DNA from: Lineus longissimus
Taxonomy: Eukaryota > Nemertea > Pilidiophora > Heteronemertea > Lineidae
Reading direction: 5' to 3'
NCBI RefSeq assembly: GCF_910592395.1
Contig: NC_088324.1
Coordinates: 5,174,953-5,238,952, forward strand
DNA: 64,000 nt
Program-made: the position numbers and the translations under genes
Shown: one piece after another, positions 10,816 through 53,955 of the stretch
How positions within the stretch are numbered: position 1 is the stretch's first letter
How the letters are laid out: each line of letters opens with the position of its first letter
The notes under the pieces: generated by a model
Seen by the model: only the letters and a program-made list of their open reading frames with translations
What the model was told of the DNA's origin: nothing
Database searches by the model: none

Positions 10816-10829
10816 TACAACAAAGTAAT

Positions 10830-10853
10830 GATATTGAAACAAATCCAGGTCCA
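10830..10853 (+). other. 2A-like ribosome-skipping motif in Helitron
   Basis: Encodes D-I-E-T-N-P-G-P, fitting the D(V/I)ExNPG|P consensus. It is in frame with the downstream protease-like and Rep domains. The upstream partner is lost because the frame is cut just before this point. Confidence 0.7.
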
Positions 10854-11779: not shown

Positions 11780-12250
11780 CAAAGCAAGACAAAATGAAAA
11801 TAAACATGAACAGCTTAAAACCAATGAGAAACTTTCCAAACAAAGAGCAAGAAAGGATGAGAGTAAACACGACCAGCTTAAAACAAATGACAGACTTTCC
11901 AAACAAAGAGCAAGAGAGAATGAAAGTAAACATGAACAGCTTAAAACAAATGAGAAACTTTCCAAACAAAGAGCAAGAGAGAATGAAAGTAAACATGAAC
12001 AGCTTAAAAAAAATGAGAAACTTTCCAAACAAAGAGCAAGAAAGGATAAGAGTAAACACGAACAACTTAAAACAAATGAGAAACTTTCCAAACAAAGAGC
12101 AAGAGAGAATGAAAGTAAACAAAAACAGCTTAAAACAAATGAGAAACTTTCCAAACAAAGAGCAAGAAAGGATAAGAGTAAACATGAACAGCTAAAAATA
12201 AATGAGAAACTTTCCAAACTGAGAGCAAGACAAAATGAGGAGAAGCGTTG
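11780..12250 (+). repeat. 63-bp coding tandem repeat (about 7-8 copies)
   Basis: Each unit codes for 21 residues of the form N-E-K-L-S-K-Q-R-A-R-x-x-x-S-K-H-E-Q-L-K-T. Copies are highly alike, with ARENESK and ARKDKSK variants alternating. The segment is very basic and probably helical. The reverse strand is also open across the repeat, which is a side effect of its periodicity. Confidence 0.9.
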
Positions 12251-14985: not shown

Positions 14986-15094
14986 AGGCTAGCCATTTTT
15001 GAGGAAATAAACTTCAGATCGGTCCAAATTTCCGTTGTCAACTTTCACTCACTTTCTCCCTATCCTTGCAGGTCCACCCCATCCCGGGGTTACA
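14986..15094 (+). repeat. 5' LTR remnant of Gypsy-B
   Basis: About 109 bp matching 37709-37817 nearly base for base, ending in GGGGTTACA. It starts exactly where the ~87-bp repeat of the 3' LTR starts (AGGCTAGCC). Everything upstream in the LTR is missing and Helitron sequence abuts. Confidence 0.88.
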
Positions 15095-24102: not shown

Positions 24103-24402
24103 TGTCAGGAATTACGCATTCCTGAACCAAGTCATTTCCTGAATCAAGTTATTAGTTCGACAAATCGCTGCAGCTGCATGGGGCCAGGAAGTCTGAGGAA
24201 ATCCTTGCGGATTAAGCTAAGCTTAATCGTCTAAGCACCTTCTTTCATCTCTTAACATCTGTTAATTTGTAATCTTGTTTACTTAGTCAATAGTTTGTAG
24301 AAATAAAGTCAGTTGTAAAAGAGATACGATAGAGTCAAGTTCACCATCAATTTGTAGTCAGCAACTCCCCAGTAGAAAACCCGAAGTGCGGAGTTTTCGA
24401 CA
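24103..24402 (+). repeat. 5' LTR of BEL-2
   Basis: Begins TGTCAGGAATTACG and ends GTTTTCGACA. Identical to the right LTR after removal of the LINE and one copy of its target duplication. AATAAA at about 24302 may be the polyadenylation signal. Confidence 0.96.
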
Positions 24403-27400: not shown

Positions 27401-29862
27401 TTTCAAAACGTAAAGTAACATCTCAGACCGCATCAATCTTCGACCCGCTCGGAATTGTAGCACCGCTGACAGTCCCTGCTAAGTCTTACGTGAACAACCT
27501 GTGGAGAGGCCAAAAAACCTGGGATGAACACTTATCAATCACCGAACGGCAAGAATGGGAAACAATCAAACAGGAGTCCCTCCCTCTCACGCACATGCTA
27601 TCTATACCCCGTTGGCTAGGGGGTGACACCAGCAAACCGTTACAAATCGTAGTATTCTGTGATGCATGTCCCACCACCGCCATTGGTTGTGTCGCTTACG
27701 CTAAACAGAACAATAAAGTCGCCCTCATCGGCTCTAAGAACAAAGTCATCTCAGAGAAAAATGTCAATTTCACAGTCCCTAAGCTTGAACTGATGGCCAT
27801 GGTCTTGGGGGTAAATTATGCAGAGACCTTGCGAAATACCTACATCACGCAGTATCAGACAATCGAAGTGGTATACAGCACTGATTCAGAGATAGCGCTT
27901 TATTGGCTCAGATCCAATAAAAAACTCAAGCAGTTTGTTCACAACCGCGTGCAAACAATACGTCAGAAGTCAGACTTGACTTCTTGGTACCATGTGTCAA
28001 CCAAACAAAACGCTGCAGACATCTTATCACGTGGTGCGACACATCAGGAATTGAAGGACTCTTCATGGCTGCAGGGACCAAAATGGCTCAAGGATGATTA
28101 AACCACGTGGCCTTTAACCGCACTTTCCGACCTAACCTTGAACAGTTCCGTCTCTCTGACAGCTGCGTTTGAAATGCAAAATGACTTCGTTGTTACAAGC
28201 ATGGTCGCAACAACACCTGTCGCAAGTATCAGCGACGTTATAGCACAGGACAAGTTCAGTTCATGGAATAGACTTCTGAGAATTACCGCCTTAGTATCAC
28301 GCGCTTTCAAACCCGGACTCAAAAACAGGAATAAACTGTCTGCACAAGATATCGCTAACGCGGAAGAAAAATGGATTACAAATCTTCAAAACGAACACTA
28401 TAAGCACGTTACGGATTACTTGAAGTTAGAACAAAGTGGAAGGCATAAGCTGCCTTCTCGACCCACAATCATCAGTCAATTAGGGCTCGTTCTTGACAAA
28501 AAAGGAACAATTCGTTGCGGCGGGAGGCTTACTAATTCAGACGTCAGCTCAGACAGGAAGTACCCAATTCTCCTGCCAAATCAATCCTACATAACAACGT
28601 TAATCGTCCGGAACGCCCACCACAACGTGGTACACTACGGCTTAGGGTCCACCATGGCTTATCTTCGGGAGAAGTATTGGGTCACATCAATGCGCTCAAC
28701 CGTTAAGAAAATCATCGGACATTGTGTAATCTGTAAGAAAGTGTCTGGGCGTCCATATCTGACTCCCATCGCACCACCACTGCCAGACTTTCGGATTAAC
28801 GACTTGTCAGCTTTCAAGTCCACTGCTGTAGATTTTACATCACACCTCTACGTACGAATTAAGGACTCGATACAAAAAGTGTACGTTTGTCTCTTTACGT
28901 GTTGCACCACGCGAGGCATACACCTTGAAATCACGCCGGACTTAACTGTTGAATCATTTCTAAGAGCTTTCAGACGTTTCACTTCAACACATTCAGTGCC
29001 TAGCCTCATTTACTGTGACAATGCCAAAACGTTTACAAGCGCCGACACCGAGCTGAAACGGCTGTACAACATTGTGGGAACAGAACAATTCCAAAACCAC
29101 CTGTCTAAGAAAGGAATAACATTCAAATATGCACCCGTACAAGCCAGCTGGTTTGCTGGCGTTCATGAGAGACTGATTGGTGTGACGAAACTTGCACTTA
29201 AGAAAACCTTGCGCAAATCACTCGTTCCAATTGATGAGTTTCAAACTCTCATCAAAGAAATTCAAGCAACGGTAAACAACAGACCACTCACATATTTGTC
29301 ATCAGATCCAAATGAACTCAAAGCGATAACACCGAATAATCTGATATACGGACATGATATGTCTTTGTTGCCACACGAAGGAGAAGATAACTTGGATGTA
29401 ACATACGCCGGCAGAGATAAACTTGAGAAATTGGCGTACAAACGCGCAGAACGACTACAAACATTCAAGAAACGTTTCTATGACGAGTATCTCGCTAGGC
29501 TACGGGAACAACACCAGTACGAACTTAGCAAACAAAATGCCAAAGCTGACATCATTAAAATTGATGACGTCATTCTTGTACACGACAAGGATGCCAAGAG
29601 GAGACACTGGAAACTTGGGATCATAAAAGAACTCAACAGAGGCCAAGATGGGCTGACCCGATCTGCGCTTGTCAAAACTGCCACAGGGCAATCTAACCGA
29701 GCAATCGGAAAATTGTATCCGCTTGAGTTAACCGTTGACGAGAGCATCGAACGGTCTGCGCAAATCAAATCTGTTCAAAAAACAAAATCTCGACCAAAAC
29801 GGTCAACCACTGACATTACGAGGCTCAAAATCAGAGAGCACTTGGATTACTACGGACAGTAG
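24475..29862 (+). pseudogene. BEL-2 gag-pol polyprotein, two nonsense codons
   Basis: A single frame of nearly 1,800 codons from ATG 24475 to TAG 29860-29862, interrupted only by TAG 24526-24528 and TAA 28099-28101. Order: coiled-coil N-terminus; DUF1759 gag (KLPTFDGSYTSWKSFWD); three Cys/His clusters (about 25499-25682); peptidase A17 with LIDRGS where D-S/T-G is usual; RT with YVDN (about 27149), a known BEL/Pao variant; RNase H (FCDACPTTAIG, STDSEIALYWL); then, after the second stop, integrase zinc motif, D-D-E residues (AVDFT, YCDNAKTF, GVHERL) and DUF5641. Initiation at 24556 would avoid the first stop. Product: virus-like particle and cDNA integration machinery. Confidence 0.93.
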
Positions 29863-30387: not shown

Positions 30388-31001
30388 TGTCAGGAATTAC
30401 GCATTCCTGAACCAAGTCATTTCCTGAATCAAGTTATTAGTTCGACAAATCGCTGCAGCTGCATGGGGCCAGGAAGTCTGAGGAAATCCTTGCGGATTAA
30501 GCTAAGCTTAATCGTCTAAGCACCTTCTTTCATCTCTTAACATCTGTTAATTTGTAATCTAACATTGTGCCAGTAATCTCAGCCAACAGTTTTGACATGG
30601 GTGTGTAGGTAACTTGCAGATTAGTCGCGCATGTGGTTGTGAGTTCAATTTTCCAACCAAACCTGTTACTCAGGCTGAGATCAAATGTTATGCGATATGA
30701 TTGTACACAACTTGTTGAGCCACAATAGCACTGATGACTGTATCAATATCTTGTTTTCGGTTGTTAATAGGTTTAAAAAATAACAACCTACTATAAGCGT
30801 TTCAAGTAAATGTGTTCATTACACTCCAACAACATAATTATTTTCATTTGTGGCAAGCCAATCCACTTAATCCTGTATCTACTGTGGTACTTGTACTAAT
30901 TTCAATTCCTCCTAAAATGTTCACCTTATTCTTCATTATGTACTTGTTTTACTGTATGTTTCTAGCTTGGCAGCTTCCCAGGATCCTATTGTTGTATTCT
31001 A

Positions 31002-34000
31002 TTGTACTTAATGGCGATTGAGTTAGCCCTTTGGAGGGCGAGAGTTGGTGAGTTTAACGGTGGAACTACATTCCGCTTTAGGGGCGGTGTGTCATCTTTT
31101 ATGCATAAGGTTAATGTGCCATTACTATTAATCCAAAGAGATGCCTTTCTTGGTGGCACTGCTCTTCTACTCTGTATGCTTTTTATGTTAATTAACCAAA
31201 AACTTGGTTTGGTCCTTATCTACTGTTGCCTCTTCTCAGTGATAAGACTTGTACTTCTCGTGGTGCCGTTTGGTGTATTTCTGATTGTCAAAAACTTATT
31301 GTCGCATCCTTTAGCTCCACGTGGTATTGTCTACTATGCTTCAACAGTTTTCATCTTATTGTTATTGGTTCCTGGGCTGTGGGATTTGACCATTTTTGTT
31401 GTTAATCCTGACTTTACGAGTAAACTTATTCTCCTGGCTGGTGATGTTGAATGTAATCCAGGGCCTAATATTAATGCTTTTAATGTATTGTTCACAAACA
31501 TAAACAGTCTCTCCGCTGAAAAAGGTCAGCGACTCAATGCTCTAAGCATGCGTCTAAAAACGGACAATATTCACATTGCTTGCCTAAGTGAAACGGGGTG
31601 TAATTTGAACCCAAGTGATTGTACAATTAGTGGATACCACAACATTGACCAGTCTGTTTACAAGGCAAGTGCCCGTGGTCTAATGGTCTATGTTCATGAT
31701 TCTCTTGTTGTCGATAGGCGATTTGACCTGGAGACACATGAAGGTTGTATGTGGTTGGATGTAAAGATAGGGCGGCGAACACTTCTCTTAGGGGTGTTTT
31801 ATCGTTCACCTTCGCAGGATAAAGCGACAAGGGACGCTTACTTTGCTGAGTTTGACAGGAGTTGTACCCTGGCTTCTAAATCAAAAGTAGATGTTACATT
31901 AATTGGAGGTGACTTTAATGCTAGGAATAAACTATGGTGGGACGGGGATGTTAATACGTGTGAAGGCTCTCAGTTGTTTGATTTATCTGTTAAACATCAA
32001 CTGTCCCAGTTTATTCATGAACCTACCAGGATCACTGACAGTTCCAAATCTTGTATTGATCTGGTTTTCAGTAATGCTCCTGGGTATGTGCTGGACGCAA
32101 CGGTTGAAGCCCCAATTGCCATGTCAGATCATAGTTCTACTATTGTTTCCTTGGACTTCTCTAAACCAGTGACTGACACTCCTACAACCAAAACAATCTG
32201 GAGCTATTCGAGGGTACACATTGATGCCCTAAATGCTGCTGTCGCTGACAATGATTGGGAAAGAGTGTTTATTGGCAACAATGTAAATGACATCACTTCC
32301 TCTTTTGTTGAGGCGTTATCCAGTATATTCAATGAGCAGATACCGCATCATGACAAAGTTATCAGAGCTAAGGACATGCCGTGGTTCTCCAGTAGGATTA
32401 AGAAAGCTGTAAATAAACGGGACAAAATGTATAGGAAACTTGTAAGGAACAATAGTATTGGCAATTTTGCTCGATACAAAGATTGTGCTAAGTGTGTGTC
32501 TGACCTAGTTACTTCAGCTAAGAAGACATTTCATGAAAATGTATGTAAGTCTCTTGATACCAGTTCGTCCAGCAGCAAAAACTATTGGCATATTATTAAG
32601 CAACTGCTCGGTAAAAAGTTTGCCTCTGGTATCCCATGTATTGTTCACAATGATAATATGTATGTTTCCCAGCAGGAAAAGTGCCAGCTATTCTTGGAAC
32701 AGTTTATGGTCAAATTTCATCATGACCACAATGAGGTCTTGTCCCCTGTTTTCCCTGCAAGGACAATGGCATCAATTAGTGACCTGAGGACCACTGAACT
32801 CGAGGTCAGAAAACTTCTATTGGACTTGGACGTCTCAAAACAAGGCGGCGTCGATGGTCTAACAAATAAAATGCTCAAACTTGTAGCTTCTTCTCTTGCA
32901 AAACCACTGTCTGAGTTATTTAATGTCCTCCTACAGCATGGCAGTTTTCCTGATTGTTGGAAATTAGGCATCATAGTGCCGATCTATAAGAATAAAGGGA
33001 GTAAGTCATGTCCTTCTAATTACCGTCCTATTACCCTGCTAAACTCCATGTCTAAGTTGTTTGAAAAGGTTGTGTACTCATCTATGTATGATCATTTGCA
33101 GCTCAATGAGCTTTTATTCAAACGTCAATCTGGCTTTCTTCCTGGTCATAGTACTGATAAGCAGCTTCTAAGTATTGTAAATATGATTCTTTCAAATTCT
33201 GAAAATGGTATGGAAACTAGAGGGGTTTTTCTTGATATTGCGGGGGCCTTTGATGCTGTTCCGCATTTTCTTCTCCTTCAAAAGCTTAAGGCCTATGGTA
33301 TAAGGGGAAAACTTCTTGAACTGCTCAGGTCGTACCTTTCAAACCGCAAGGTTAAGGTAAAGATCGAAAGTTCTTCTTCGGATCTGAGCCCGACAGGTTA
33401 TATTAATAGTGGTGTTCCACAGGGTTCTATACTTGGCCCGCTCCTCTTCTTATTGTATATTAATGATCTAAGTGATGTTGTTAAAAATTGTATCTTGTAT
33501 CTTTATGCTGATGACAGTTCTTTATTTCTCCCGGCCTTGCCGAATTCCACTGACGAAACCCATACTCTTATTCAAAATGACCTTCACAATTTGTCAGTTT
33601 GGTCGGATGTGTGGAAACTTGATTTTAAAGCGTCAAAAAGCAAAGAGGTCATATTTCACTCTCCTCGTAAAACTATCAATAACCATCCACCTCTGTCTTT
33701 GGGTACGGGAGTTATTCCAAGGGGCGCATTCCATAAGCACCTTGGTGTTACACTTGATGAGTGTTTGACTTTTAGCATGCATATCAACAATATTGTAGTA
33801 AAATGTAACAACATGTTAAATCCACTGAATGCTTTGAAGTTTACGGTTCAATCAAGGCATCTTGAACGCATGTATCTATCATTTATATTACCTCATCTTG
33901 AATATGGATCTATTATATTTGACTTTACCAATCAGGGTCTACTTTCTCAATTAGATAAAATCCATTATAGGGGTGCCATTATAGTCAGTGGTTGTATTCA

Positions 34001-34727
34001 TGGGACTAACACCCAAAAGGTTTTAAAATGTTTGGATTGGATGTCACTTTCTGCTCGGCGTAGGGAAAAAAGATTGGTGCTTATGTATGAGGTACAACAC
34101 AATTTGGTACCATGTTATGTCAATGAAATCTTTGACATTTATCGTAATCGGGCGCCTCCTGGCCGTTTAAGGACTCAGCGAGACTATGTACTTCCCCCTA
34201 GATCATCTGCAAGATTTAGCAAGTCAACTGTGCCATGTGTAATTAGAGATTGGGAGTCTGTGCCTGTCAATATAAAAAACTGCTTCTCAAGAAACTCATT
34301 TAAATACAATATCCGAATTTTTCTGAGAGGTAAACATAACCTTCTTACTTCTACAAAATTGGCTCTTACTCGTAAAAATGAACTTTCACTCAATAGGACA
34401 AGGTGTGACTTAGTTTTTCGGTGTCACTTTTATTCCCACAATTTTACCAACGTTTTAAGTCCATCTTGTGATTGCGGGGCTCACTCCCAATCTACTAAAC
34501 ACCTTCTCTTTAATTGCCCTTTATTAAATGATTTACGTAACGATTTCTTGAATGATCCTGGTTTGCTGCCACACCTTACTTCTGTTAGGTTTTTCAATCT
34601 TCGTGTTGATGAGAGGCTCCATTTTCTTCTTAATGGTCAATTTTCATTGGACCTTACTTCAAACAGGCTTGTTGTAGAAAAAACAGCCACTTTTCTCAGT
34701 AATATTATCGCCTTTTCTGGTAACTAG
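31002..34727 (+). CDS. LINE ORF: hydrophobic leader, 2A peptide, AP endonuclease, reverse transcriptase
   Basis: An uninterrupted 1,241-codon frame. Residues about 30-145 contain several hydrophobic stretches that look membrane-active. Residues 147-155 spell GDVECNPGP, a 2A ribosome-skipping motif, so the leader would be released from the enzyme. The AP-like endonuclease follows (FTNINSLS, LSETG, LIGGDFNARN, SDHS). Then comes RT with NYRPITLLNSMSKLFE, QSGFLPGHSTDKQL, GVPQGSILGPLLFLLYIND and YADDSS (about 33504), and a C-terminal Cys/His cluster (CDCGAHSQSTKHLLFNC). The enzyme nicks target DNA and copies its RNA there. Starts at 31002 or 31017 are both possible. All key residues seem present, so this copy may be active. 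CR1, L2 or Jockey affiliation needs a tree. Confidence 0.92.
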   Translation: MYLMAIELALWRARVGEFNGGTTFRFRGGVSSFMHKVNVPLLLIQRDAFLGGTALLLCMLFMLINQKLGLVLIYCCLFSVIRLVLLVVPFGVFLIVKNLLSHPLAPRGIVYYASTVFILLLLVPGLWDLTIFVVNPDFTSKLILLAGDVECNPGPNINAFNVLFTNINSLSAEKGQRLNALSMRLKTDNIHIACLSETGCNLNPSDCTISGYHNIDQSVYKASARGLMVYVHDSLVVDRRFDLETHEGCMWLDVKIGRRTLLLGVFYRSPSQDKATRDAYFAEFDRSCTLASKSKVDVTLIGGDFNARNKLWWDGDVNTCEGSQLFDLSVKHQLSQFIHEPTRITDSSKSCIDLVFSNAPGYVLDATVEAPIAMSDHSSTIVSLDFSKPVTDTPTTKTIWSYSRVHIDALNAAVADNDWERVFIGNNVNDITSSFVEALSSIFNEQIPHHDKVIRAKDMPWFSSRIKKAVNKRDKMYRKLVRNNSIGNFARYKDCAKCVSDLVTSAKKTFHENVCKSLDTSSSSSKNYWHIIKQLLGKKFASGIPCIVHNDNMYVSQQEKCQLFLEQFMVKFHHDHNEVLSPVFPARTMASISDLRTTELEVRKLLLDLDVSKQGGVDGLTNKMLKLVASSLAKPLSELFNVLLQHGSFPDCWKLGIIVPIYKNKGSKSCPSNYRPITLLNSMSKLFEKVVYSSMYDHLQLNELLFKRQSGFLPGHSTDKQLLSIVNMILSNSENGMETRGVFLDIAGAFDAVPHFLLLQKLKAYGIRGKLLELLRSYLSNRKVKVKIESSSSDLSPTGYINSGVPQGSILGPLLFLLYINDLSDVVKNCILYLYADDSSLFLPALPNSTDETHTLIQNDLHNLSVWSDVWKLDFKASKSKEVIFHSPRKTINNHPPLSLGTGVIPRGAFHKHLGVTLDECLTFSMHINNIVVKCNNMLNPLNALKFTVQSRHLERMYLSFILPHLEYGSIIFDFTNQGLLSQLDKIHYRGAIIVSGCIHGTNTQKVLKCLDWMSLSARRREKRLVLMYEVQHNLVPCYVNEIFDIYRNRAPPGRLRTQRDYVLPPRSSARFSKSTVPCVIRDWESVPVNIKNCFSRNSFKYNIRIFLRGKHNLLTSTKLALTRKNELSLNRTRCDLVFRCHFYSHNFTNVLSPSCDCGAHSQSTKHLLFNCPLLNDLRNDFLNDPGLLPHLTSVRFFNLRVDERLHFLLNGQFSLDLTSNRLVVEKTATFLSNIIAFSGN
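31440..31466 (+). other. 2A ribosome-skipping motif in the LINE
   Basis: Encodes G-D-V-E-C-N-P-G-P, a full match to the 2A core. It sits between the hydrophobic leader and the endonuclease. Confidence 0.85.
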
Positions 34728-37817: not shown

Positions 37818-39547
37818 GTGACAGGTGCGCAATACGTCACGAGTGATCAGCACAAAGACTTGACTGTTGCAAGAAAGGAAAGAGATCACAATGATACCTT
37901 TAAAATTCTTGTACACTTCCAGGAGTACAGTCCATTTGTATCGTCTGAAGCATTGCACAACATTGCCACTGGAATTACAGCCAGTGCTTCATGCAATCAG
38001 CACAAAGCACAAGATGTGGGCGTGAATATCCTACAAAAAATGGAAGGACAAAACGCATTTGAGTATTCCTTCAGTAGACAGGCCCAAATAGAGAGACTTG
38101 GACCAAAGCCAGTAGTTGTTGGTGGTGAAATTGTGGCTGTTGATCCACAGCTCCTTTTCCAGCGGTTGCTGATTGTGGCTAATAACTCTGACTGCAACCT
38201 TGGTGAACTTTTAAAATATGAACTGTCTACCTATCCGACTGCCTTGTTTGACAGCACGGTTTTCTACGCGAGGCAAACAAACCACAGCTCGCTGATGCAC
38301 TGAAGGATCATCTATCGCCGAAGGATCATCTATCGCAGCCGCAGTCCGTGCCAGAATACCATGTGTTCGATGGAGGATCATTACTTCACCGATTTCAATG
38401 GAGGAATGGGGCTACATTTGATCAAATTGCCAACATGTATGTGGACTATACAGTGAAGAACTTTGCTAATCCTGCTGTTGTGTTCGATGGATACAAGTCG
38501 AGTGGTTCCACAAAGCACGTAACACATATGAGAAGGTCAAAGGGGGCTGTTGGGCCAACAGTTTTGTTCACAGGCAGCATGACTCTAAAATCAAAAAAGG
38601 GACATTTTCTCGGAAACACAGAAAATAAACAGAGTTTCATACAATTCCTGTGTGAAAAGCTCCAGGCTAGTGGCGTAAGAACGTTGAATGCTGATGGCGA
38701 TGCGGATCTCTTGATTGCCTTAACTGGTGTGGAATGTGCCAAGCTTGGTGTGACGCATGTTATTGGGGAAGATACTGACTTGCTAGTGCTACTCTGCCAC
38801 CACACACAACCGGGAATGCACGAGTTGATCTTCAGATCTGATAAGCCGAAAAGAACAGACAAGTCCAACAAGTGTAATTGTTGGAATGTCAACCTCTTAC
38901 GAGACCTCTTGGGTGATAAGGTTTCTTACTTGCTGCCTCTTATCCACGCAGTAGGTAGTTGTGACACAACCTCCAGGTTGTATGGCATAGGAAAGGGGGT
39001 TCCGCTAAGAAAGGTACAGACAGACGCAAACCTATGTAAACACATGGAATCCATTCTGGAAGGTTCTACTCCGAAGGAAATTCAGATTGCTTGGGAAGGT
39101 GCCTTGGTGTCTTTGTATGGTGGCATGGAACATGAGACATTGGATTCCTTACGACTCCGGAAGTTCAAAGACAAAGTAGTAAAAAGTGTAGCTAGTGTTC
39201 AGATTCAAAACCTCCCACCTACATCCGATGCCACCAAATACCACAGTTACCGTGTGATGTACCAAGCTAAATTGTGGATGGGCAAAGATGGTGAATTAAA
39301 ACCAGATGATTGGGGATGGCAATATCAACAGGATAAGTTGGTACCACGAACAATGGACTGTCGGCCAGCACCAGAGAGTGTTCTCAAAGTTGTTCGATGT
39401 CAGTGCAAAGGAAACTGTTCTAATAATAAATGTAGCTGCAGAAAGCATGGCTTACAGTGTACCAGTGCATGCAGTGAATGTAAGGGTGTCAGTTGTACCA
39501 ATACACCAAACATTGCAGAAGAACTGAGCAACATGGATATCGAGTGA
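37818..39547 (+). pseudogene. PIN/FEN-like nuclease-fold protein with CXC (tesmin-like) tail, 5'-truncated and frameshifted
   Basis: Coding begins at the LTR edge, so the N-terminus is lost. The first frame (37818 to about 38270) shifts by one base near 38270 into the frame that runs to 39547. The second part has a PIN/XPG-like Asp pattern: VFDGGSLLHRFQW, VVFDGY, DGDADLLIAL, GEDTDLLVLL (about 38770) and GSCDTTSRLYGIGKG. It ends with a Cys-rich CXC-type motif (CQCKGNCSNNKCSCRKHG, about 39400-39455). An 18-bp direct duplication (GAAGGATCATCTATCGC) lies at about 38303-38340. I know this architecture as a multi-copy family in invertebrates, probably transposon-borne, but cannot name its element. 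It could be a structure-specific nuclease; this is inference from the fold. Confidence 0.65.
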
Positions 39548-42318: not shown

Positions 42319-42322
42319 TTAA

Positions 42323-42332
42323 AGGGAAGGAC
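42323..42332 (+). repeat. Left terminal inverted repeat with TTAA outside
   Basis: AGGGAAGGAC, preceded by TTAA at 42319-42322. Confidence 0.82.
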
Positions 42333-42467
42333 AAATCCTCACCCACAACTTCATGAATAAATATGCTTTGGGGTCTTAAAAATCAATTTCAATTCATTTT
42401 AATCGAAATGCACTGTTAATTTGATCACAATTCTACGATTTGTTTGGCTTGAATTTGGTTTAATTCG

Positions 42468-42526
42468 TCGTCTGCTAAAAACTTGACATCAGCGCCACCA
42501 CACGTACGTGACGTCACGGCATGTAT
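42468..42526 (+). promoter_or_regulatory. Left subterminal inverted segment, likely promoter of the ballast-like gene
   Basis: Shares TCGTCTGCTAA, AGCGCCACCA and CGTGACGTCACGGCATGTAT with the right-hand copy, in the same order and nearly the same spacing. It contains the full CRE-like palindrome TGACGTCA. It ends 35 bp before the ATG at 42561. Confidence 0.7.
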
Positions 42527-42560
42527 ACAATTTACGATCAGCTGTTCAGATCCACGCAAA

Positions 42561-44076
42561 ATGATGGCTTCGAGTGATGATTCTTCAAGTCTGTCCGATA
42601 TAAGCGATAATTTCAACGATAGCGATGAGAGTAGGGACTCCGAATCTATTGATCTTGACGAGGAAGAGTTCGAAGAACAGATTGGTGCCGGTGGGGCGGT
42701 GAAAGGATACCAATTCGAGCCGCACGGCGATGAAGATGGCAGTTCTGAATTTTCTTCAAATTCGTCTTCAGAATCCGCGGAGGAAGACGCAAATATGGCC
42801 AAGTGGAGGGAACGAATGACCACAACGAAATGGTAATTAGTTTTTCCTTTCAATGTCCTGGGTTGCCAGTCATCGTTTCTCAAATCTTTCGTTGAATCAT
42901 TGTCGAATTTGGCCATAATTAAACATGTTCAAAGATACCAGTTCACCCAATGTACAAATCCACTAGCCTACATTACATACATGGACGCACTAAAAATATA
43001 CACAACTACTACATGCATGACAGGTGAATGCACTCATCTCCAGTCAGTGTTGGGAAGTCAATATTGACTGTAGCTACTATATAGGGCCTATGTCTTAGTC
43101 CTGTTTAAGTAACAATGTTTAATACCTCAGGATGTGAATGATGATAGACCACTGGTAGTGGTTCGTTCGTGAATTCCTCCCGCTAGAATCGAGAAACCCT
43201 TATAAAAGGTCGTTGTATTTACAGTCTCTGGCGATATATAGTCTGTGGCATATTAAGTTGCATATTAAGTTGCATAGCGAGTTGGTTGGTTGTGGTTGTT
43301 TCTATCAAATGTTATTTCCTCAAAAAATCTAATCATCACTCCACACACATTATAATTATGTTCATTATTTTTTAGGTGCGAATGTGACAAGAAATGTGTT
43401 AACTCACTGATACCAGAGGAGAATGCCTGCTGCCGGGAGAAGGCCCCAATTGATGGAGTACTCGAGGAGTACAACTGTGACTTCAAGCCAGAGATCGCAT
43501 GCATAACGGACCATCCTGCTTTCCACAGCAATTGCCTCGATGTCTGGTCCCTGCAGCTTGCATACAGGCTCTTTCATAAGAAGGAAGTGCCAGGAGCAAT
43601 AAACTTGTAAGAAGACTTCTTCTATTTTTATTTTTTTATTAAATTATAATTATTCACTGTATTAGTGTGTACACTTTTACAAAAGAAGAACAATATGGCA
43701 TCAAATTTGTTGTGTATCATTGTACCAGTAAACCTTTTTAAACCACAAAGATAATTTTTATCTAATGGTCAAGCATATTTTCTGCTCCATTAGAATTCAA
43801 GCCTTACCAGCTCTGACCAGTACACGCAGGCCTGAATTATGCCATCTATGACAGAATCCATTTCTTCATTTCAGGAAATACAGATATGTTGCATATCGGC
43901 AACTAATCCGATGGTGTTGGAGATATCTTGGAGAAGGGAATCGTGTGCCATTACCAGCCTGTGCTGTTCATTTAATCCGTAAGACTTTTCCTCCAGAAGG
44001 CGAAATTGTGGGCTTTAAGTATCCACCACTCAAGAACAAAGGCACTAAGAGAAAAAGGCGGAATAATAGTCAGTGA
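42561..44076 (+). CDS. P2X7 ballast-domain-like protein, three exons, 234 aa
   Basis: Exons 42561-42832, 43376-43606 and 43875-44076 join in phase with GT/AG borders and end at TGA 44074-44076. Exon 1 is serine/acidic-rich and probably disordered, with KGYQFEP near its middle. Exons 2-3 carry the Cys-rich fold seen in the cytoplasmic tail of P2X7 receptors: WCECDKKC, NACCREK, CITDHPAFHSNCLDVW, AYRLF, YVAYRQLIRWCWRYLG, ACAVHLIRKTFP. No channel or membrane segment is present. In P2X7 this region binds zinc and guanine nucleotides; a role here is unknown. It lies within the TTAA-bounded element and converges on the transposase gene, with 29 bp between stops, so I take it as an element-borne accessory protein. 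A captured host gene is the alternative. Confidence 0.82.
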
Positions 44077-44105
44077 CACTGTTCAATGTTCAAACAGACT
44101 GGTCT

Positions 44106-47100
44106 TTATAATTTCTTGAAACGCTTGTACCTCGCCAAGTAGCCTTCTACTGCTTCACGTTTATCAGGATGTACATATTTGCTACTCAGAAAGTCATGTT
44201 TTCGTTTGTTTGTAATCTTCATGTTGTTCTTACATCTATGATGAGCTTCATCCATCAGTCTCTTTGCATAGCCTAAAAATAGACATTGTAATTTATGTAA
44301 AGAAATATGTTTAAATAATAATAATATTAAAGTTTTCATAATACTGAAACAAAAGTAATTCTTTTTCAATCTGAAGTCTAATATGTTCGCTCCTTTGAAA
44401 AATCATGCAAGAAATAATTCATAATGTGGAAAAGTAAGCAATCATTGCAAGAGGGGTAAGGGGTGTATCAGCTCCTGTCTATAATGACCCTTCCTTTGGG
44501 TACCTACTTGAAACTCTGGTGAGAGTCATTGACACTCTGTACATTCATGACACTTGTAGATGACAGCACAGTATTTTATTGTGGAGAATTATGTTTAATA
44601 GCAGTGCTGGGACTGTTTGAGTGGTAATGGGTCTGATCAGAGTTAAGTACATGAACTTACCATATGTGCTCTCTTTCCTCACTGGTCGAACAGAATGACC
44701 CCCCTTCTTCACTTTTGGAAAGAAGACGTCCCACCTCTCCTTCCCATCTTTGTTGACTGCCTGCTCCTTCTTGCCATTTTCATTATAATGTAAGGCAGCA
44801 ATACATAGTCTGAAATCAAACAGAAAAAAAATGAAAATGCATCGTAGGCCTGTGACAGCGTAGGCCTGTAACAGCTGAAGTAAGCCAGTGACTGGGCAGT
44901 GGCTGGCTGGCTTACTTGAGCATTTACAGTATGTGGCATTGAAAGTACACTGGAACAAACATATTGACCACTCGTGAACCATAGGCATCTTAAAGCCAAT
45001 AATAGTTATAGTGCCATTCATGTCAACAAAATAAGTTTAAAGTTAAGTACGTACTGGTAAACATGTACATGAAGATTGAATTCAGTAGCTAGGGGATATC
45101 AGTTTTCATTATTGCACCCCCTGCACTGCCCAACTGTTCAGCATCACTGCACTGATTATTTAAATGATTCAAAAACTGTCCTACCTGCTTTCCATGCCAT
45201 CAGGGAAGAAATGGATCTGTTTTGGTGCGAAATGGTTCACCACACTGTGAAACGCCTCAATTCCGGATGTTTGTTGACTACAGGATATCTTTCCAATATC
45301 TTTGACTAATCTTGGGGCAGTGATGATTTTGGTCAATTCATTGGACACCCTTGTTCCTGAAAATGAAAACAAAACTTACCCATACAGCATGAACAATTCA
45401 CAAGTTTGCTCTTACCATAACATGGAACCCCCCCCCCCCCCCCAGGAAAATATTCATTAAAATACAATACCTGCAGTAAGCCACTTTTTGCTGTTGCGTC
45501 GTCGCTTTCGAAGTCTACCGTGGCCACACTTGGGGAACAGGTTGCCATGACCTTTGTGGATGTTGTGAAGGTGATTATCCAATGACTTCCATTTGGCAAT
45601 TATCAGATCAGATTGACCCTCAGGGGTGTTCGATGCCACATAATAGAGGTGGTTGGTGATGGCCTTACACCACTCCGCAGCTATTTCGCACCCTTTCAGC
45701 TTCGCAATTTTCAGAACCTTCTTCTTCACATCTGGAAAAAAGTAATCCCAATTAACCATTGATTGAATGAACAATTCTGCATGTCTTTTGCTGAACTCAA
45801 GAAGGAAATAAGACATTCATATGACACCCAAGTACCAAGTCATGGATTCACACAATCGAGGGCTAGCACTAGCAGTATATGCACATTACATGTACTGGTA
45901 AACAATATTTGACAATGTCTACATATACAATAGGCCTACAAGCTGAGATGGAATTTCATTAAGCACTCCGTGCAGGAGGTGAAAGATTATTGTAGAGTGG
46001 CCTGAAATCAATATTTAGTGATTTAATTTTTTTACATCCGTATGAAAACATGTAGGCTTCATGTACTTACTTTTGGCAAGATGCCATGCATCAAAGAAAT
46101 GTGAAGTTCCCCCAAGGTTTTCTCTGAGCCATTTCTGTATTTGACAATGTCTGTCAGTGATTATCTTGTTAATCGATACATCATTTTCATCAAGGATGCG
46201 TACACAGCGGATCAGCCCTTCTTTCTCCATATGAACTGAAGATTTGACCTCTGTACTCTGGAATGGAAATGTCATGGTACCGGTAAATACAACTTTCATG
46301 TGTCATGTTTTGGACCTATGATTTTTCTTTGACTTTGGCAAAATTCGACTTCTGTGAGTTCTACTTATTTAGGCAAGGTTTTAATTTACTTGAGACCACT
46401 GGCTCAAAAGTATTTACAAACAGCCCTAATGCCTTGTTTCTCATTGTTTGTGAGGAAAACCACAGAAAAACTTTTCAATATCAATAATAACTTGGTATAG
46501 AGGTGAAAAAAACTTACTTGGACAAGCTCCATGGCTATGATCTTTTTATTGTCAAGGTCCATGAGGGAATACGATCCATACTTGGCTGAATGGCCAGGTG
46601 TATCCGACCTGCCATCACCACCAACGACAAGAGGGGCATCACTCTCCTTAACGTCAACTAGTAGTGCATGTTGTTCTTTGCTCCATACTTCTGTCACGGC
46701 TGGGCTAAGGTACATGCGCTGGTGATTAAAGTACGTTGTCCTGGAGAAGGCCTGGCAACCAAACAACTTTAGAAAACGAAGAATTTTGGCTGGTATGCTG
46801 CCCGAAAACAGTATGGAACCTGACAAGAGGATGTTCCCTGCTGGTACCTTGCCACACATCGGTTGGCTGTGCCAAACCCTGGAAGAAGAAATGACCTTGC
46901 AATGCATATACAATGGAATATCATTTGAGCCATCTGAAATACATACACATACCGGTAAATTATTTCAAAGAAAGCAGTGCACACTCTAGTAAATCATATG
47001 TAATTCACAATGGGCTGTCAGAGTGGCGCATTGGCAACATCGGCGCCTGTCACCACTGAGGTCCCGAGTTCGATTTTCGGTCGAATCCGGTCACTTATGT

Positions 47101-49804
47101 GATAGAGAGGCAACTCTTTGACAGCATAGGTTTTCCCGGGACTCCGGTTTCCTCCTACATAACAATAGCATCACCCAGTTTAATTAAATGAGTAGCTATA
47201 ATGCCTTAATTAGACGCTTGCACTCCTCGAATAATATTTTAATCCACAATGCTTATGTACCAGTAATGAGGAAATGATAATTATCAGTCCATATGAAGAG
47301 ACATAAAAATAGGCTTATTTGACTCAAATGAAAACTATACCGTACCGTGAAAATCCACATTGACTGTTACTGCAGTGCTGCTCAATCGATATGAAAGTTC
47401 CAATCCTTTTGATATGCCCCGATGATTCTGATGAACACACTGGACATGATGCAAACAAAGTCATCAGACAAGAATGAAAAACGAAATACTTTTCCTCCGA
47501 GACTGGGTCTTTGCTGGAAATGAAAATGACAACACATGAAGGACAAACAGACAACTGACAATTTGATACTAGCACATCTGAAACAAAATCGTCCTCAATC
47601 TGGTATTCCCGCCAAAACAAAATACATGTAGCTGTTCAGTAGTAGAATCTGAGAAAACCCATTTGCTTTAGTTCAACATGAAATCTTTGTTATTATTCTT
47701 AACTTTCAAAGGAATTAGTCAGCAGCACTTACTTTACTTCATTCTGCCAATCTTCGAATTCCCTTTCATCACAATCATCAGATTCATCAGCTGAATTTGG
47801 TTCATAATCTGGATCAACAGAATCATGCATTTCATCCTCTGTCTCCATGACCGAGTCGTCATCAGTTTCAACAGGCATGGCAGTACCACTACAAACATCT
47901 GGCTCCAGTGGTGGATCTGGCAAGTCACAGCCCTGGGGACAATTGCACATACATTTACATGTATCAGTTTGAGTTCCTGAAAACACAGGGGCAACATTAT
48001 ATTAAGCCTACATGCATAATGCCATAATTGAAGAATTGCACCATCTATACCAGAATACATCCTCATGTCCATACATCCTCATGTCCATGTTGTCCAAGAC
48101 AGTTGCTTTGCTAGTACTAAATCCCAAGATTAACTCAGTTCACTGTCCACAGCGGATTGGCACTTAACTGCTTCAGTTATGACAACAACCTCCACAGGAA
48201 TTGATTATAACAAAAAAAACCAGATAATTGACATTGTGATTGGCAAATACATGTATATTAACCATTTGTGAATTCATGAAATTTACAAAGACTTTACACT
48301 TACAGCTCAGCTGTGGTTTTGGAGGGGCAAGATTTTTTTCATCCATTGTGCATGTTTCATATATTGCAAAGAAATCTTAAAATTACCTTGTGAAAAAGTG
48401 TTTGGCATAACTTGTACGTGAAAGGAACGATAAGACGTTCTCTTAGTCTGCACGTATTGATCCACAAGCTCTGGCTGAAATACAAAAATTTGAGATTAGA
48501 ATGAGGAATATCATTTCAGACACAAAATATACCATGTGCTGGCCTACATGATGTGTACTGCACTGAACATGACATGACAACAATGCTCCACAAATTCAAG
48601 TATAGCTGTTATTGACACCAATCAGACAAATGTCAGACTGCAATTACTTGATATCATTCTTTTCCTGAAAGTGATGTCAATGTGTGATGATGGCAGTATT
48701 TGATTGAGACAACTCTCGGGAAAAAAAGAAATGAGTGGGATGGCCATGTTTCTTACCAACTTTGTCATGTTTGTATCATTGCATTCTATCTCCATCGCCT
48801 CTGAGTCTGCCTCACATGATGATGGCCCTGGTACTGGTGATGATGGTGCTGTAGTGGAATCAGCTGACTCAGTAATTCCAGAACTTGGAAGTAATACTTC
48901 CATGGCTTCTTTGACCCTCTGAAATGGAACAATATTTTTATCAGGGGTAAGGTCATAAATAATAAATTTATTGGCTTAACTCAACTGCATTATCTCCCCA
49001 ATATGGGTAAGGGTTACGGTTAGTTGCCTATATTTTTCCCATACATAAATTCTAATACATTTCACACTCAATGGTTGGGGATAATGCAAATATGCACCCC
49101 CCCCCCCCTCCTCCCATTCCACACACTCACATGACGTGTGTTTACTTGTCTGACAATGACTTTAGTCTAAGTACAAGTAGTAGGCTAGGGCCTAGGCCTA
49201 GCTAGGCTATGCTATTGCTAGAGCTATGCTAAGTTAAAGTAAGTTAAAGTTGGCGAACTAGACTAAATCATGAAATAAATACAATGAAATATAGAATAAT
49301 GTATGATGATGCACGTACCTTTCTCCTGTCTTTTTTGGTTGCCCAAGGTCTAGAAGTTGGGGGTCGTCTTGGGGTTGAACCACCGGCGAAGGAAGAGGAA
49401 GAAACAGAAGGCCTAACGTTAGGACTAGGGGTGCCATGGGTTGGCCTTTTGGGGAAGAGGTCCGGATTTGGCTTGGCCTTGGGCACTAACCTCCACGAGA
49501 TTTTTCGAGCCGCCTCTAGACCCTTATCCTCCAACATAATCCTGATTTGCATCCAGTTATCGATTTGGTCCCGATCAAAATGGTCGCCACAAAGCCGTGA
49601 TGTGCCTTTGACGAACTTGAAATCCTGGCGAGTCCTCCGAACTGCTTTGCACCAAAAATCGAATCTTTCCGGCGACTTCTCACGGGCAGGAAACTCGAAC
49701 ACTCCAACACCATCCTTTAATTTCGATTTATCACAGCCCCAAGCGGCACAGCGAGTTCCCCCATCTCTCCTCTGCCTCTTCGGCCTCTCACTAAACTCCT
49801 GCAT
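44106..49804 (-). CDS. THAP-domain DDE transposase (Kolobok-like), 11 exons, 814 aa
   Basis: Exons on the minus strand: 49804-49319, 48918-48757, 48474-48387, 47976-47733, 47513-47346, 46878-46518, 46257-46071, 45731-45471, 45356-45185, 44809-44661, 44272-44106. All phases agree, all introns are GT/AG, and the sum is 2,445 nt with no internal stop. Exon 1 is a THAP zinc finger (CAAWGC, FWCKAVRR, SRLCGDHF) with a basic tail. Exon 4 has a CKCMCNC cluster and an acidic stretch; exon 5 has CPVC. The catalytic part shows GGDGRSDTPGHSAKYGSYSLMD-type sequence (exon 6), TDRH and FFDAWHLAK (exon 7) and SGIEAFHS (exon 9), a plausible D-D-E set. THAP would bind the element ends and the DDE domain would cut at TTAA. 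All expected parts seem present. Confidence 0.85.
45425..45443. repeat. Poly-C tract
   Basis: About 19 consecutive C in a transposase intron, near the exon 45356-45185 acceptor. Confidence 0.9.
47011..47200 (+). mobile_element. tRNA-derived SINE in a transposase intron
   Basis: GGCTGTCAGAGTGGCGCATTGG at the start resembles a tRNA A box region and GAGTTCGATTTTC a B box. Downstream is a GGGACTCCGGTTTCCTCCTACA-type block like conserved SINE bodies. It lies between exons 5 and 6, opposite in strand. Right end unclear. It is too diverged from a tRNA to be functional as one. Confidence 0.55.
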
Positions 49805-49909
49805 TCACGATTTTGAATAGAATATCGGCACACAATAGCAAAATTGTCGCGACCCAGATATCAATATCACTGCTTTGTTAACATAAAATGGACGATCTGG
49901 ATACAATGG

Positions 49910-49969
49910 ATACATGCCGTGACGTCACTTGTCCGATGGTGGCGCTGCAGTCTCACTCTTAGCAGACGA
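49910..49969 (-). promoter_or_regulatory. Right subterminal inverted segment, likely promoter of the transposase gene
   Basis: Inverted match of 42468-42526, including TGACGTCA. It lies about 105-165 bp upstream of the transposase ATG (49804, minus strand). Confidence 0.7.
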
Positions 49970-50112
49970 TGTTTTCAGCCAGTTTTGCAGTGTCTAAAGT
50001 CCCGTCATTTGGGTTAAAATAATTTGATAAACAAGGGGCGAAGTGTTTGAGAGAGTTGTTTACTGTACAAAGCATCAAATACAAGCAATAATTGCATGGT
50101 AAAAAACCACCG

Positions 50113-50122
50113 GTCCTTCCCT
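50113..50122 (-). repeat. Right terminal inverted repeat with TTAA outside
   Basis: GTCCTTCCCT, followed by TTAA at 50123-50126. Perfect reverse complement of the left end. Confidence 0.82.
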
Positions 50123-50301
50123 TTAAAGTTGAAACTTCTATAGCAAGGAATATGAAGATGTGAACTTTGCATTATTATTTTTTGAATGTATGAGTCTATT
50201 GAATGTAAATTAAATGCATATTGTGAATAATTAATAATAATAATATTGTGTACATTGAAATCATGACTTTTAATTTTTGTGTACTGGTACTGCCTTGATA
50301 T

Positions 50302-50930
50302 GTTGTCCTCTGTGACTGTTGTCTCATCTCTCGGAATAACAAGACCCCAAGCTGGATGAAACACCTACATCCCCTGCATATAAAAGATAGGTTGTGACAT
50401 AATGTCCTCTGTGACTGTTGTCTCATCTCTCTTAATAACAAGGCCTCAAGCGGGATGAGACAGCTACATCCCTTGCCTATGATAATAAAGGTTGTAACAT
50501 ATAATGTCCTCTGTGACTGTTGTCTCATCTCTCGGAATAACAAGGCCTCAAGCTGGATGAGACAACTACATCCCTTGCCTATGATAATAAAGGTATGTCC
50601 TCTGTGACTGTTGTCTCATCTCTCTTAATAACAAGGCCTCAAGCTGGATGAGACAACTACATTCCTTGCCTATGATAACAAAGGTTGTGACATGTCCTTG
50701 GTGACTGTTGTCTCAATTTCACTCCCGGAATTACAAGACCCCAAGCTGGATGAGACACCCGTTGTCCTGCCTATGATATCATAGGTTGTGACCTGTCGAT
50801 TTTTGCAACTAACTGTCTCATCTTGGTAGGCCTACAATAGGACACATTTGTCCTGCCTATATATACTATAGGTAAAGACCTGTTCTTTGCGACTATTTGT
50901 CTCATTTGTGTACAACAGGGCACCAATCTT
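50302..50930. repeat. Minisatellite of ~90-105-bp units, each able to form a hairpin
   Basis: Units begin TGTCCTCTGTGACTG near 50302, 50403, 50505, 50595 and 50693; two more decayed copies follow. Inside each good unit GTTGTCTCATC and GATGAGACAAC can pair (11 bp, ~27-nt loop). Units end with CCTTGCCTATGATAATAAAGG. The array starts about 175 bp outside the Kolobok-like element. Confidence 0.88.
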
Positions 50931-51963: not shown

Positions 51964-53955
51964 GCAAAATAATATCAATTCTATCGACAGCCTTCTCGGG
52001 AAGAGGTGGGATGTCCTGCCTCTCCCTGATAGTTTCTTTCGTTGCGTGACGGAACTGTCATTTCGTCTGGATATCAATGGAGTGGGAAAGTTGACAGTGA
52101 AAACGGCGCGTTTGGAGGGCCACCTACCATCTGACTACAGGCAATTTATCCAAAATAGGTTTACTGTTAGTCGTTGCGATGACGAGTGAGGGACCAAGCT
52201 CTGTACATGTAATTTTCCCCAAGTAAAAGCCTTCCGTCATTTGCGGCCATCATTTCACAGGGTAACATTGTTGAGCAAAGCAAAGCGGGTGAAGAACGAC
52301 AAGCCTATATCAAGGACAGGGTTTCTTCCCTAGTCAATAACATCAACAAACGAGGAGTTAGACAATGAAATTTCAAAGTGCTTTTCAAGAAGAAGAACAA
52401 CTTCAGTGAGCCAGAACCAGTGAAATTGAACAAGACACATGCAATAACAGTGATCTCCCCACCCCCTGAAGACCAATCAGCTGAATTTCCACATATATTC
52501 TCAAATGTAATAGACGACATACAATTTGGAAAGAAGCTGGACAAGAACGTGGCGGAGACACTGAGCCTTCAAGAAGAGTACACGCATTTGAGTCTGACAA
52601 AAGCAATATTTGCTCACTTCCATGCAATGGTTGAAATTCTATCAAAAGATCCTGACCCTGAGCTGATTCCTGGAAGAATGGAGGGATCCAAGATGACAGA
52701 AGATTACAGATGGGGCTATGGGGACGGCGACATGGCAAACTAAAAGCACCAATCGGAAAGCTTTTACCAACTATTCACGCTCCGATATGGAAGCAAGGAA
52801 CTCAGTCCATACATGATAAAACTCATTGATCATGCCCCACAGCTGATGCTTCAGTTGCCATTTCCTCTTGCACGATTTCAATCAGAAGGCGGCGAACATG
52901 CAAATTACTTGCATAAAACTTACTTCTATCACCACACAAGGAGAGGCGGGGGCAAGGACAAGCCAGACACTACAAGGGAGATGTTATTCAAGGTTTGGAA
53001 GGATTTACGATACGAAATAGATTCGAAGATGACATCTGACCAACCAGATGCAAGACAGGCAAGCTTAGATTTCCAGAGATATGTCAAACAACATTTGGCT
53101 GCAACTACAATTCAGAACAGAGTGAGGGAATATTTGAAAACCAAGCACTCCAAGTCTCCTACTGAAACCATCAAAGACAGGAGCTGTTCTCTTGAATCCA
53201 AAGCCAGCTGCCTGTCTGGACTGAATTTCATCCTATGTGGTAAAGTTCCATCGCACAATGGTAAATCTTCTACTCAAGATGCCATGAAGAAACTTATTAA
53301 AGACAACGGAGGCAAGATTGGCCCAGCCAATTTGCCGGACGGTAGTGGAAAAGGATTGTCAACAAAAAGGTACACTGTACTTTCAGCACAAGCACGCATT
53401 GATGGAAGTAAGGTTCCAGAATGCATGAACATAGCTCTGAGAAGAAAATTTGACATCCTCTCGTATGACTTCATACATAAAGCTGTAGAGAATAATGCTT
53501 GTGATATCGACACCTATAGATTGAACACAAAGAAACTGGAAGCAAAAATTGTCCCGGACATTACAATAGAGGAGAAGCATTTCTCAAAAACTCCGCAAAT
53601 GCTCACATTGATCAAAGGCTGTCGCCGAAGAAAATGGTCGGCTGAAAAATGCATCTCACACAGCGAATATAAATCAGCAGGTAGAAATGCAGCACAGTTG
53701 TATGTAAATACAAGGCAAGATATATCTCTGAAACATGTCAAGTTAGACTTTAAGTCACAGACCAAACTAAAAGCAGGGTACTTTGAAGAATGGAGAAACT
53801 TGATCGAAGCGGAGAAGAAAGTGTGGAGAGAGCGATGGAAGGATAGGGTTAATGCAAATTTAGAAATCATCCGCTTGGCCGATGAAAAGGGAAGACTACT
53901 CGAAAAGTACAATAGAATTAAAAAACAGACCAGCGAGGCCGGATGCCTGAAATGA
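51964..53955 (+). pseudogene. BRCT-domain protein, decayed
   Basis: A coding-like frame begins near 51980 (SIDSLLGKRWDVLPLPDSFF) and is cut by a TGA near 52188. It resumes by about 52260 and is cut by TGA 52366-52368 and TAA 52741-52743. It then runs open from 52744 to TGA 53953-53955. Recognisable parts are HAPQLMLQLPFPLARFQSEG, HANYLHKTYFYHHTRRGGG and a BRCT-like domain (LSGLNFILCGKV, LIKDNGGKI, FDILSYDFIHKAVE; about 53215-53510). The C-terminus is basic with a coiled-coil (about 53780-53930). BRCT domains bind phosphopeptides or DNA ends. The rest resembles uncharacterised repeat-borne invertebrate proteins; I cannot name the element. No intron is needed, so it may be a processed or intronless transposon gene. 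Confidence 0.6.

What the first reader, a model, noticed from the sequence alone, without database searches (positions are those of the whole stretch)
42323..50122. Intact two-gene Kolobok-like transposon with convergent transposase and P2X7-ballast-like genes
TTAA duplications, perfect 10-bp inverted ends, matched subterminal inverted segments and two uninterrupted spliced genes define one unit. A DDE transposon that carries a P2X7-tail-like protein as a second gene is, to my knowledge, not a standard element description. The gene stops are 29 bp apart, so the unit is compact and looks selected as a pair.
Basis: partly seen in the sequence, partly recalled or inferred. Interest (0 to 1): 0.92.

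Follow-up and report, generated by a model that had tools for sequence, protein, structure and literature searches.

The report
Two-gene Kolobok transposon with KolX
This is a complete, apparently recently active jumping gene of the Kolobok type in a ribbon worm that carries a second gene related to the tail of the P2X7 receptor; that pairing is already published under the name KolX, so it is a well-preserved new member of a known kind.

Summary
Window 42323-50122 is one TTAA-flanked element with perfect 10-bp inverted ends, a 3-exon plus-strand gene (234 aa, Pfam P2RX7_C) and an 11-exon minus-strand THAP/DDE transposase (814 aa); the stops lie 29 bp apart. The genome holds four full-length copies at four TTAA sites; three have both genes open. 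One copy's insertion point aligns to unoccupied relatives of its flanking repeat. A second, diverged family has the same convergent pair, with pN/pS near 0.3 for both genes, though KolX is broken in both of its copies seen. Genome-wide, 86 of 118 transposase loci have a convergent P2X7-tail-like gene within 10 kb (shift controls: mean 0.41, maximum 3), none a divergent one. The interpretation that this is no standard element is wrong: Kojima & Bao 2022 (PMC9587614) describe the Kol0 lineage of Kolobok as encoding a transposase plus KolX, which has the P2X7 cytoplasmic-ballast domain. Additional here: the phylum (not among the Kol0 hosts that paper lists in the sections read), genome-wide pairing, and a subterminal motif found only at element ends. 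What KolX does is unknown; I favour a zinc-binding cofactor or regulator of transposition.

The parts
42319..42322 (.). TTAA target-site duplication, left
   Evidence: TTAA at both ends of all four copies
42323..42332 (+). terminal inverted repeat AGGGAAGGAC, left
42469..42526 (+). subterminal module CGTCTGCTA..GCGCCACC..GTGACGTCA..CATGTAT (KolX side), including TGACGTCA at 42509-42516
42561..42832 (+). KolX exon 1 (acidic/serine-rich N-terminus)
43376..43606 (+). KolX exon 2 (cysteines 92, 94, 98, 109, 110, 133 of the protein)
43875..44076 (+). KolX exon 3 with stop; RW..LPACAVHLIRKTFP block
44106..44272 (-). transposase exon 11 with stop
44661..44809 (-). transposase exon 10
45185..45356 (-). 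transposase exon 9, catalytic E in GIEAFHS (by motif)
45471..45731 (-). transposase exon 8, H2CH-like HLHNIHKGHGNLFPKCGH
46071..46257 (-). transposase exon 7, second D (ITDRHCQ) and DAWH (C/DxxH) motif
46518..46878 (-). transposase exon 6, first D (GGDGRSDTPG)
47346..47513 (-). transposase exon 5
47733..47976 (-). transposase exon 4, cysteine cluster CKCMCNCPQGC and acidic stretch
48387..48474 (-). transposase exon 3
48757..48918 (-). transposase exon 2
49319..49804 (-). transposase exon 1 with start codon and THAP domain (Pfam PF05485)
49910..49968 (-). subterminal module, inverted copy on the transposase side, including TGACGTCA at 49920-49927
50113..50122 (-). terminal inverted repeat, right
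50123..50126 (.). TTAA target-site duplication, right

Best explanation
An autonomous, recently mobile DNA transposon of the Kolobok superfamily, Kol0/KolX type, in Lineus longissimus. Shown here: TTAA insertion at four sites, unoccupied relatives of one copy's target repeat, two open genes, the same convergent pair in a second family and at most transposase loci of the genome, and purifying selection on both proteins between families. Inferred from the superfamily: the THAP-DDE transposase binds the ends, cuts the element out and pastes it into TTAA. Inferred: the subterminal module about 145-215 bp inside each tip, which also lies upstream of each start codon, serves as transposase-binding site and/or shared promoter element. 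Inferred with less confidence (about 0.45): KolX is a zinc-binding cofactor or regulator that works with the transposase in trans, so each family keeps both genes. The confidence given is for the identity of the element, not for the role of KolX.
For: Ends and TSDs of four copies; 8 of 10 genome-wide matches of the exact 14-base end are these ends; identity to the window copy in blocks over 200 bp 99.5-99.8% (C8) and 96.8-99.2% (C6, C12); both genes open in 3 of 4 copies. Unoccupied sites: joined C8 flanks align across the junction to three repeats elsewhere, one with an intact single TTAA. KolX: Pfam P2RX7_C E 6.8e-11, PDB P2X7 E 1e-7 over residues 88-219. Transposase: THAP E 6.4e-8; D, D, DAWH, H2CH-like and E motifs in order, kept in family 2. 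Family 2 has ends TTAA-AGGGAG and the convergent pair, two copies on C6. pN/pS between families 0.31 (0.23-0.40) for KolX and 0.28 (0.24-0.32) for transposase. 86 of 118 transposase loci have a convergent KolX within 10 kb, 0 a divergent one; 300 shift controls gave mean 0.41, maximum 3. Module: 10 genome-wide matches, all inside ends of six elements of the two families, 0 for the control; 4 of the 10 are the ends from which the pattern was made.
Against: 29 of 118 transposase loci had no KolX found within 10 kb and 75 of 164 KolX loci had no transposase match. Three of the four searches scored only 150 of 151, 187 and 170 candidates, and with the Pfam search alone the KolX of the window, C8 and C12 copies was missed, so absences are not proven. 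The two KolX-only loci read are deletion derivatives. KolX is broken in one of four family-1 copies and in both family-2 copies seen. No phylogeny against named Kol0 transposases could be made. No expression or activity data. A fold prediction for a relative KolX was of low confidence. Synonymous sites between families are saturated, so only pN/pS is used, on tblastn stretches that may run a little into introns.
Confidence: 0.92

Rival explanations
1. KolX is a passenger: the pair is kept only because both genes sit between the same ends, and KolX contributes nothing to mobility.
For: Genes between the ends hitchhike automatically. KolX is broken in one of four family-1 copies and both family-2 copies seen. 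29 of 118 transposase loci lack a detected KolX.
Against: pN/pS of KolX between families is about that of the transposase (0.31 vs 0.28), and lower in the ballast part (0.23) than in the N-terminus (0.43). The seven zinc-ligand cysteine positions are invariant in seven KolX proteins 33-77% identical to the first. A passenger would drift after family divergence.
Confidence: 0.12
2. KolX is a self-encoded repressor of transposition rather than a helper.
For: A multicopy cohort has KolX exons without stops while the transposase is mostly deleted in the two copies read, as in repressor-making deletion derivatives of other transposons (recalled, P-element KP type).
Against: Any internal deletion that starts in the transposase leaves KolX by default; only two of these copies were read.
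Confidence: 0.25
3. The two genes are a chance neighbourhood: a host ballast-domain gene beside a separate transposon.
For: Stand-alone ballast-domain genes exist in many animals (PMC7016195, passages).
Against: Both genes lie between the same ends in 4 of 4 copies with different flanks and in a second family; 86 of 118 convergent, 0 divergent genome-wide.
Confidence: 0.01
4. A piggyBac element, which also uses TTAA and in a few families encodes a protein like the KolX C-terminus (PMC9587614).
For: TTAA target.
Against: Ends begin AG and close CT, the RR/YY termini given for Kolobok as unlike piggyBac; THAP domain and DAWH motif; the Pfam scan of the transposase gave THAP alone at E up to 1; the cysteines are present, whereas the piggyBac proteins described lack most of them.
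Confidence: 0.01

Closest known systems
Kolobok superfamily, Kol0 lineage with KolX (Kolobok-1_XT type; Kojima & Bao 2022, PMC9587614; abstract, sections 3, 10, 12, 16 and passages seen)
   Same: TTAA duplication, RR/YY termini, DDE transposase with C/DxxH, second gene KolX homologous to the P2X7 ballast with seven conserved cysteines
   Different: A new family, in a phylum not among the Kol0 hosts listed in the sections read (vertebrates, annelids, cnidarians, sponges); the subterminal module, the convergent 29-bp spacing and genome-wide pairing were not met in the parts that I read
XKol transposons of Xenopus (PMC6004289; passages seen)
   Same: TTAA, AG termini, THAP C2CH, H2CH and DDE motifs; the related T2-MITEs have AGGRR ends
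   Different: The passages seen describe the transposase only; different end sequences
KolobokP (PMC9587614)
   Same: Kolobok superfamily
   Different: KolobokP has long terminal direct repeats and a His-Me nuclease; none of the 20 largest of 35 direct-repeat families joins the two ends of this element
P2X7 receptor cytoplasmic ballast / stand-alone ZCD and nanor-like genes (PMC7016195, passages seen)
   Same: Domain homology over KolX residues 88-219; seven cysteines in matching order, one pair placed by eye; residues matching R546 and R578 kept, the two that the paper finds kept beyond deuterostomes
   Different: No channel; the H547 and R574 positions are Y and V in the window copy (read from the alignment)

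Membership tests
Kolobok superfamily | TTAA target-site duplication | tested here: met
   4 of 4 copies; one of three unoccupied relatives keeps a single TTAA
Kolobok superfamily | 5'-RR and YY-3' termini | tested here: met
   AG...CT; definition
Kolobok superfamily | DDE transposase with C/DxxH between second D and E | tested here: met
   GGDGRSD, ITDRH, DAWH, GIEAFHS in order; catalytic roles assigned by motif only
Kolobok superfamily | THAP domain and H2CH finger in the transposase (PMC6004289) | tested here: met
   THAP E 6.4e-8; H2CH-like block at residues 619-636, by eye
Kol0 lineage | second protein KolX with P2X7 ballast similarity | tested here: met
Kol0 lineage | seven zinc-binding cysteines | tested here: met
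   C92, C94, C98, C109, C110, C133, C197 in the window protein; matching to the P2X7 ligands partly by eye, as the alignment leaves the CC pair 109-110 unmatched; equivalents invariant in 7 of 7 other KolX proteins of the genome
Kol0 lineage | ballast three-dimensional fold | tested here: inconclusive
   AlphaFold2 on a relative KolX (L054): mean pLDDT 56.5; no fold search made
Kol0 lineage | position in the DDE tree with named Kol0 families | not testable with these tools
   named Kol0 sequences were not at hand; homologue database switched off
KolobokP | long terminal direct repeats | tested here: not met
   none among the 20 largest of 35 direct-repeat families
KolobokP | His-Me finger nuclease gene | tested here: not met
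   Pfam scans of both proteins found only P2RX7_C and THAP
KolobokP/E/D | second CCHC finger downstream of the first D | tested here: not met
   no CCHC between GGDGRSD and ITDRH in the translation (by eye)

The most novel reading that the evidence does not exclude
KolX is an obligatory second subunit or regulator of Kol0 transposition, using the subterminal module as its DNA site, so that the P2X7 ballast descends from a transposition cofactor whose zinc and nucleotide chemistry first served DNA movement.
Probability: 0.25. Interest if true: 0.65.

Novelty: new member of a known kind. Interest (0 to 1): 0.33.

Why it matters
The role of KolX, and hence the original job of the domain that became the P2X7 tail, is not given in the parts of the papers read here. 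This genome offers three copies of one family with both genes open, a second family and deletion derivatives, which makes a plus/minus-KolX transposition assay directly feasible.

Tried and rejected
Considered and rejected: chance pairing, piggyBac, KolobokP (see rivals and membership). A viral-contig scan with KolX residues 92-234 gave 7 pattern matches, none a relative. Rfam: 0 matches in the window. The transposase had 0 PDB sequence matches at E up to 0.1. The low-confidence fold was not taken to fold search. I first thought that the window copy had gained a SINE in a transposase intron; C6 and C12 also have the 297-bp segment, so it is absent from C8 only.

Literature: PMC9587614 abstract, sections 3, 10, 12, 16 and passages; PMC7016195, PMC6004289, PMC8593623 passages; others as search listings only. 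Searches for 'KolX' (1 paper) and 'Kolobok'+'P2X7' (2 papers) in the held open-access library are the basis for what is in print on the pair; the subterminal module was not searched for in print. Supplements could not be read.
Full report
What is there. The unit 42323-50122 is bounded by TTAA and by AGGGAAGGAC inverted ends. The plus-strand gene (42561-42832, 43376-43606, 43875-44076) gives 234 aa and matches Pfam P2RX7_C (E 6.8e-11, residues 74-216) and P2X7 chains of the PDB (E 1e-7, residues 88-219). The minus-strand gene has 11 exons from 49804 to 44106 with consistent phase, 814 aa, a THAP domain and the D, D, DAWH, H2CH-like and E motifs (positions). The stops are 29 bp apart.

Where it is. 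The window is C17:5174953-5238952 of a 391,118,348-base assembly in 30 contigs. The lengths of the six contigs seen (C2 29.19, C4 25.59, C6 21.66, C8 20.96, C12 17.97, C17 16.30 Mb) agree within 0.01 Mb with chromosomes 2, 4, 6, 8, 12 and 17 of Lineus longissimus, 391 Mb (PMC8593623, passages). That paper counts 32 scaffolds, the held copy 30 contigs. I take the organism to be this nemertean.

Copies. The first 278 bases match four places at 97-100%. Read in full, all four have both ends and TTAA on each side: spans with TSDs 7808 (window), 7516 (C8), 10736 (C6), 8859 bp (C12). Both genes are open with GT/AG splice sites in the window, C8 and C6 copies; window and C8 differ by 0 bases in KolX and 4 in the transposase coding sequence, window and C6 by 14 (9 amino acids) and 14 (5 amino acids). 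C12 has an insertion in KolX exon 1 and a 7-base deletion in exon 3; its transposase reading frame stays open but has small indels and no GT donor at exon 10. The exact 14-base end occurs 10 times in the genome, 8 at these ends; its control has 11 matches.

Unoccupied sites. The C8 copy sits in a repeat. Of the 23 places listed for its joined flanks I aligned three that span the junction; all three align across it, and one (C19:10012600-10012798) keeps a single TTAA there, at about 74% identity. These are relatives of the target repeat elsewhere in the genome, not alleles of the same site. The same search for C12 did not complete.

A second family. The C6 copy lies between transposase exons 10 and 11 of another two-gene element, C6:7819905-7843305, with ends TTAA-AGGGAG and the same convergent order. 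A further copy without this insertion, C6:7496422-7502542, has TTAA-AGGGAGGGCCCAA at both ends and both genes by position. Between the families, KolX (199 codons) is 69% and transposase (677 codons) 64% identical in amino acids; pN/pS is 0.31 (bootstrap 0.23-0.40) and 0.28 (0.24-0.32); the ballast part of KolX 0.23, its N-terminus 0.43. Synonymous sites are saturated, and the tblastn stretches used may run into introns. Six of the seven ligand cysteines could be compared there and are kept; the seventh shows in the second copy. KolX is frameshifted in both family-2 copies, and the second also has an in-frame stop, so this family is partly decayed.

Pairing through the genome. Transposase exon 6 has 126 matches, 118 after merging neighbours. 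The KolX searches (Pfam family 118 matches, exon 2 73, exon 3 150, of which 149 were entered) give 164 merged loci. 86 of 118 transposase loci have a convergent KolX within 10 kb, 0 a divergent one; by nearest neighbour it is 85 convergent, 4 same-strand, 29 none. In 300 circular shifts the convergent count averaged 0.41 and reached at most 3. The shift control used the last match as contig end, an approximation. Of the 29 without a find, eight are on C14, all on one strand. 75 of 164 KolX loci have no transposase match within 10 kb; the two that I read are derivatives of another family with AAGGTCATATATCAAGG ends, KolX kept and most of the transposase gone. Three of the four searches were capped at 150 scored candidates, so absences are not proven. 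Seven KolX proteins, from the eight best Pfam loci with one duplicate left out, share the seven cysteine positions without exception.

Subterminal module. Within 300 bp of the tip, four ends (KolX and transposase side of the window copy and of the first family-2 copy) share CGTCTGCTA, GCGCCACC, GTGACGT and CATGTAT in that order; 500 single-base shuffles of the ends shared no 8-mer. Ends on the same side of the two families are related by descent, so the sharing between the two sides is the telling part. As a pattern of the first three words it occurs 10 times in the genome, all inside ends of six elements of the two families, with 0 matches for the control; four of the ten are the ends from which the pattern was made, and two of the twelve ends lack the exact pattern. 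In the window element it contains TGACGTCA at both sides, a CRE-like palindrome (name recalled). It lies upstream of both start codons, so a promoter role and a transposase-binding role are both open.

Known or new. PMC9587614 says that the Kol0 group, the first Kolobok families reported, encode a transposase and KolX; that KolX is similar to P2X7 residues 476-595 with seven conserved cysteines; and that P2X7 arose by fusion with KolX. The element fits each Kol0 feature tested here except the fold, which was inconclusive, and its place in the DDE tree could not be tested. It is a new family in an animal group not listed for Kol0 in the sections read.

What remains open is what KolX does. Selection on it about as strong as on the transposase, the fixed orientation and the conserved cysteines argue for a function in the element's life cycle; cofactor and repressor cannot be told apart here.

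Noticed in passing
C14 of the own genome (2458513, 3377035, 3814476, 4941120, 5370097, 5884668, 7147108, 8044520): Eight transposase-exon matches without a detected KolX, all on the plus strand of one chromosome at intervals of roughly 0.4-1.3 Mb; could be a dispersed array or a captured transposase.
   Followed up: no
L069 (C4:18229500-18238500) and L068 (C2:13979000-13988000): Derivatives with other ends (AAGGTCATATATCAAGG) that keep KolX exons and have lost most of the transposase; further KolX matches of the same score suggest a multicopy cohort.
   Followed up: partly
window 10722-14987: A long open frame with a Helitron_like_N domain and, nearer its start, a Herpes_teg_N match at E 1.6e-10; by eye it overlaps a Gypsy-like frame and holds a 2A-like NPGP motif.
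   Followed up: partly
window 3268-6390, 22630-24234, 24529-28101, 30966-34727: Retrotransposon frames: two with Pao peptidase (A17), one with RNase H and integrase domains, one LINE-like with endonuclease and RT and a GDVECNPGP 2A-like motif by eye.
   Followed up: partly
window 50304-50757: About 4.6 tandem copies of a 102-bp unit just outside the right end of the element.
   Followed up: no
window 38252-39547 and 52744-53955: Open frames of 431 and 403 aa; the first has no Pfam match at E up to 0.001 but a cysteine-rich end, the second only a weak BRCT match below the cut-off.
   Followed up: no
C13:15902232-15902429 of the own genome: A lone KolX exon 3 at 97% identity to the window's, with no transposase match listed near it: a possible remnant of the same family.
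   Followed up: no
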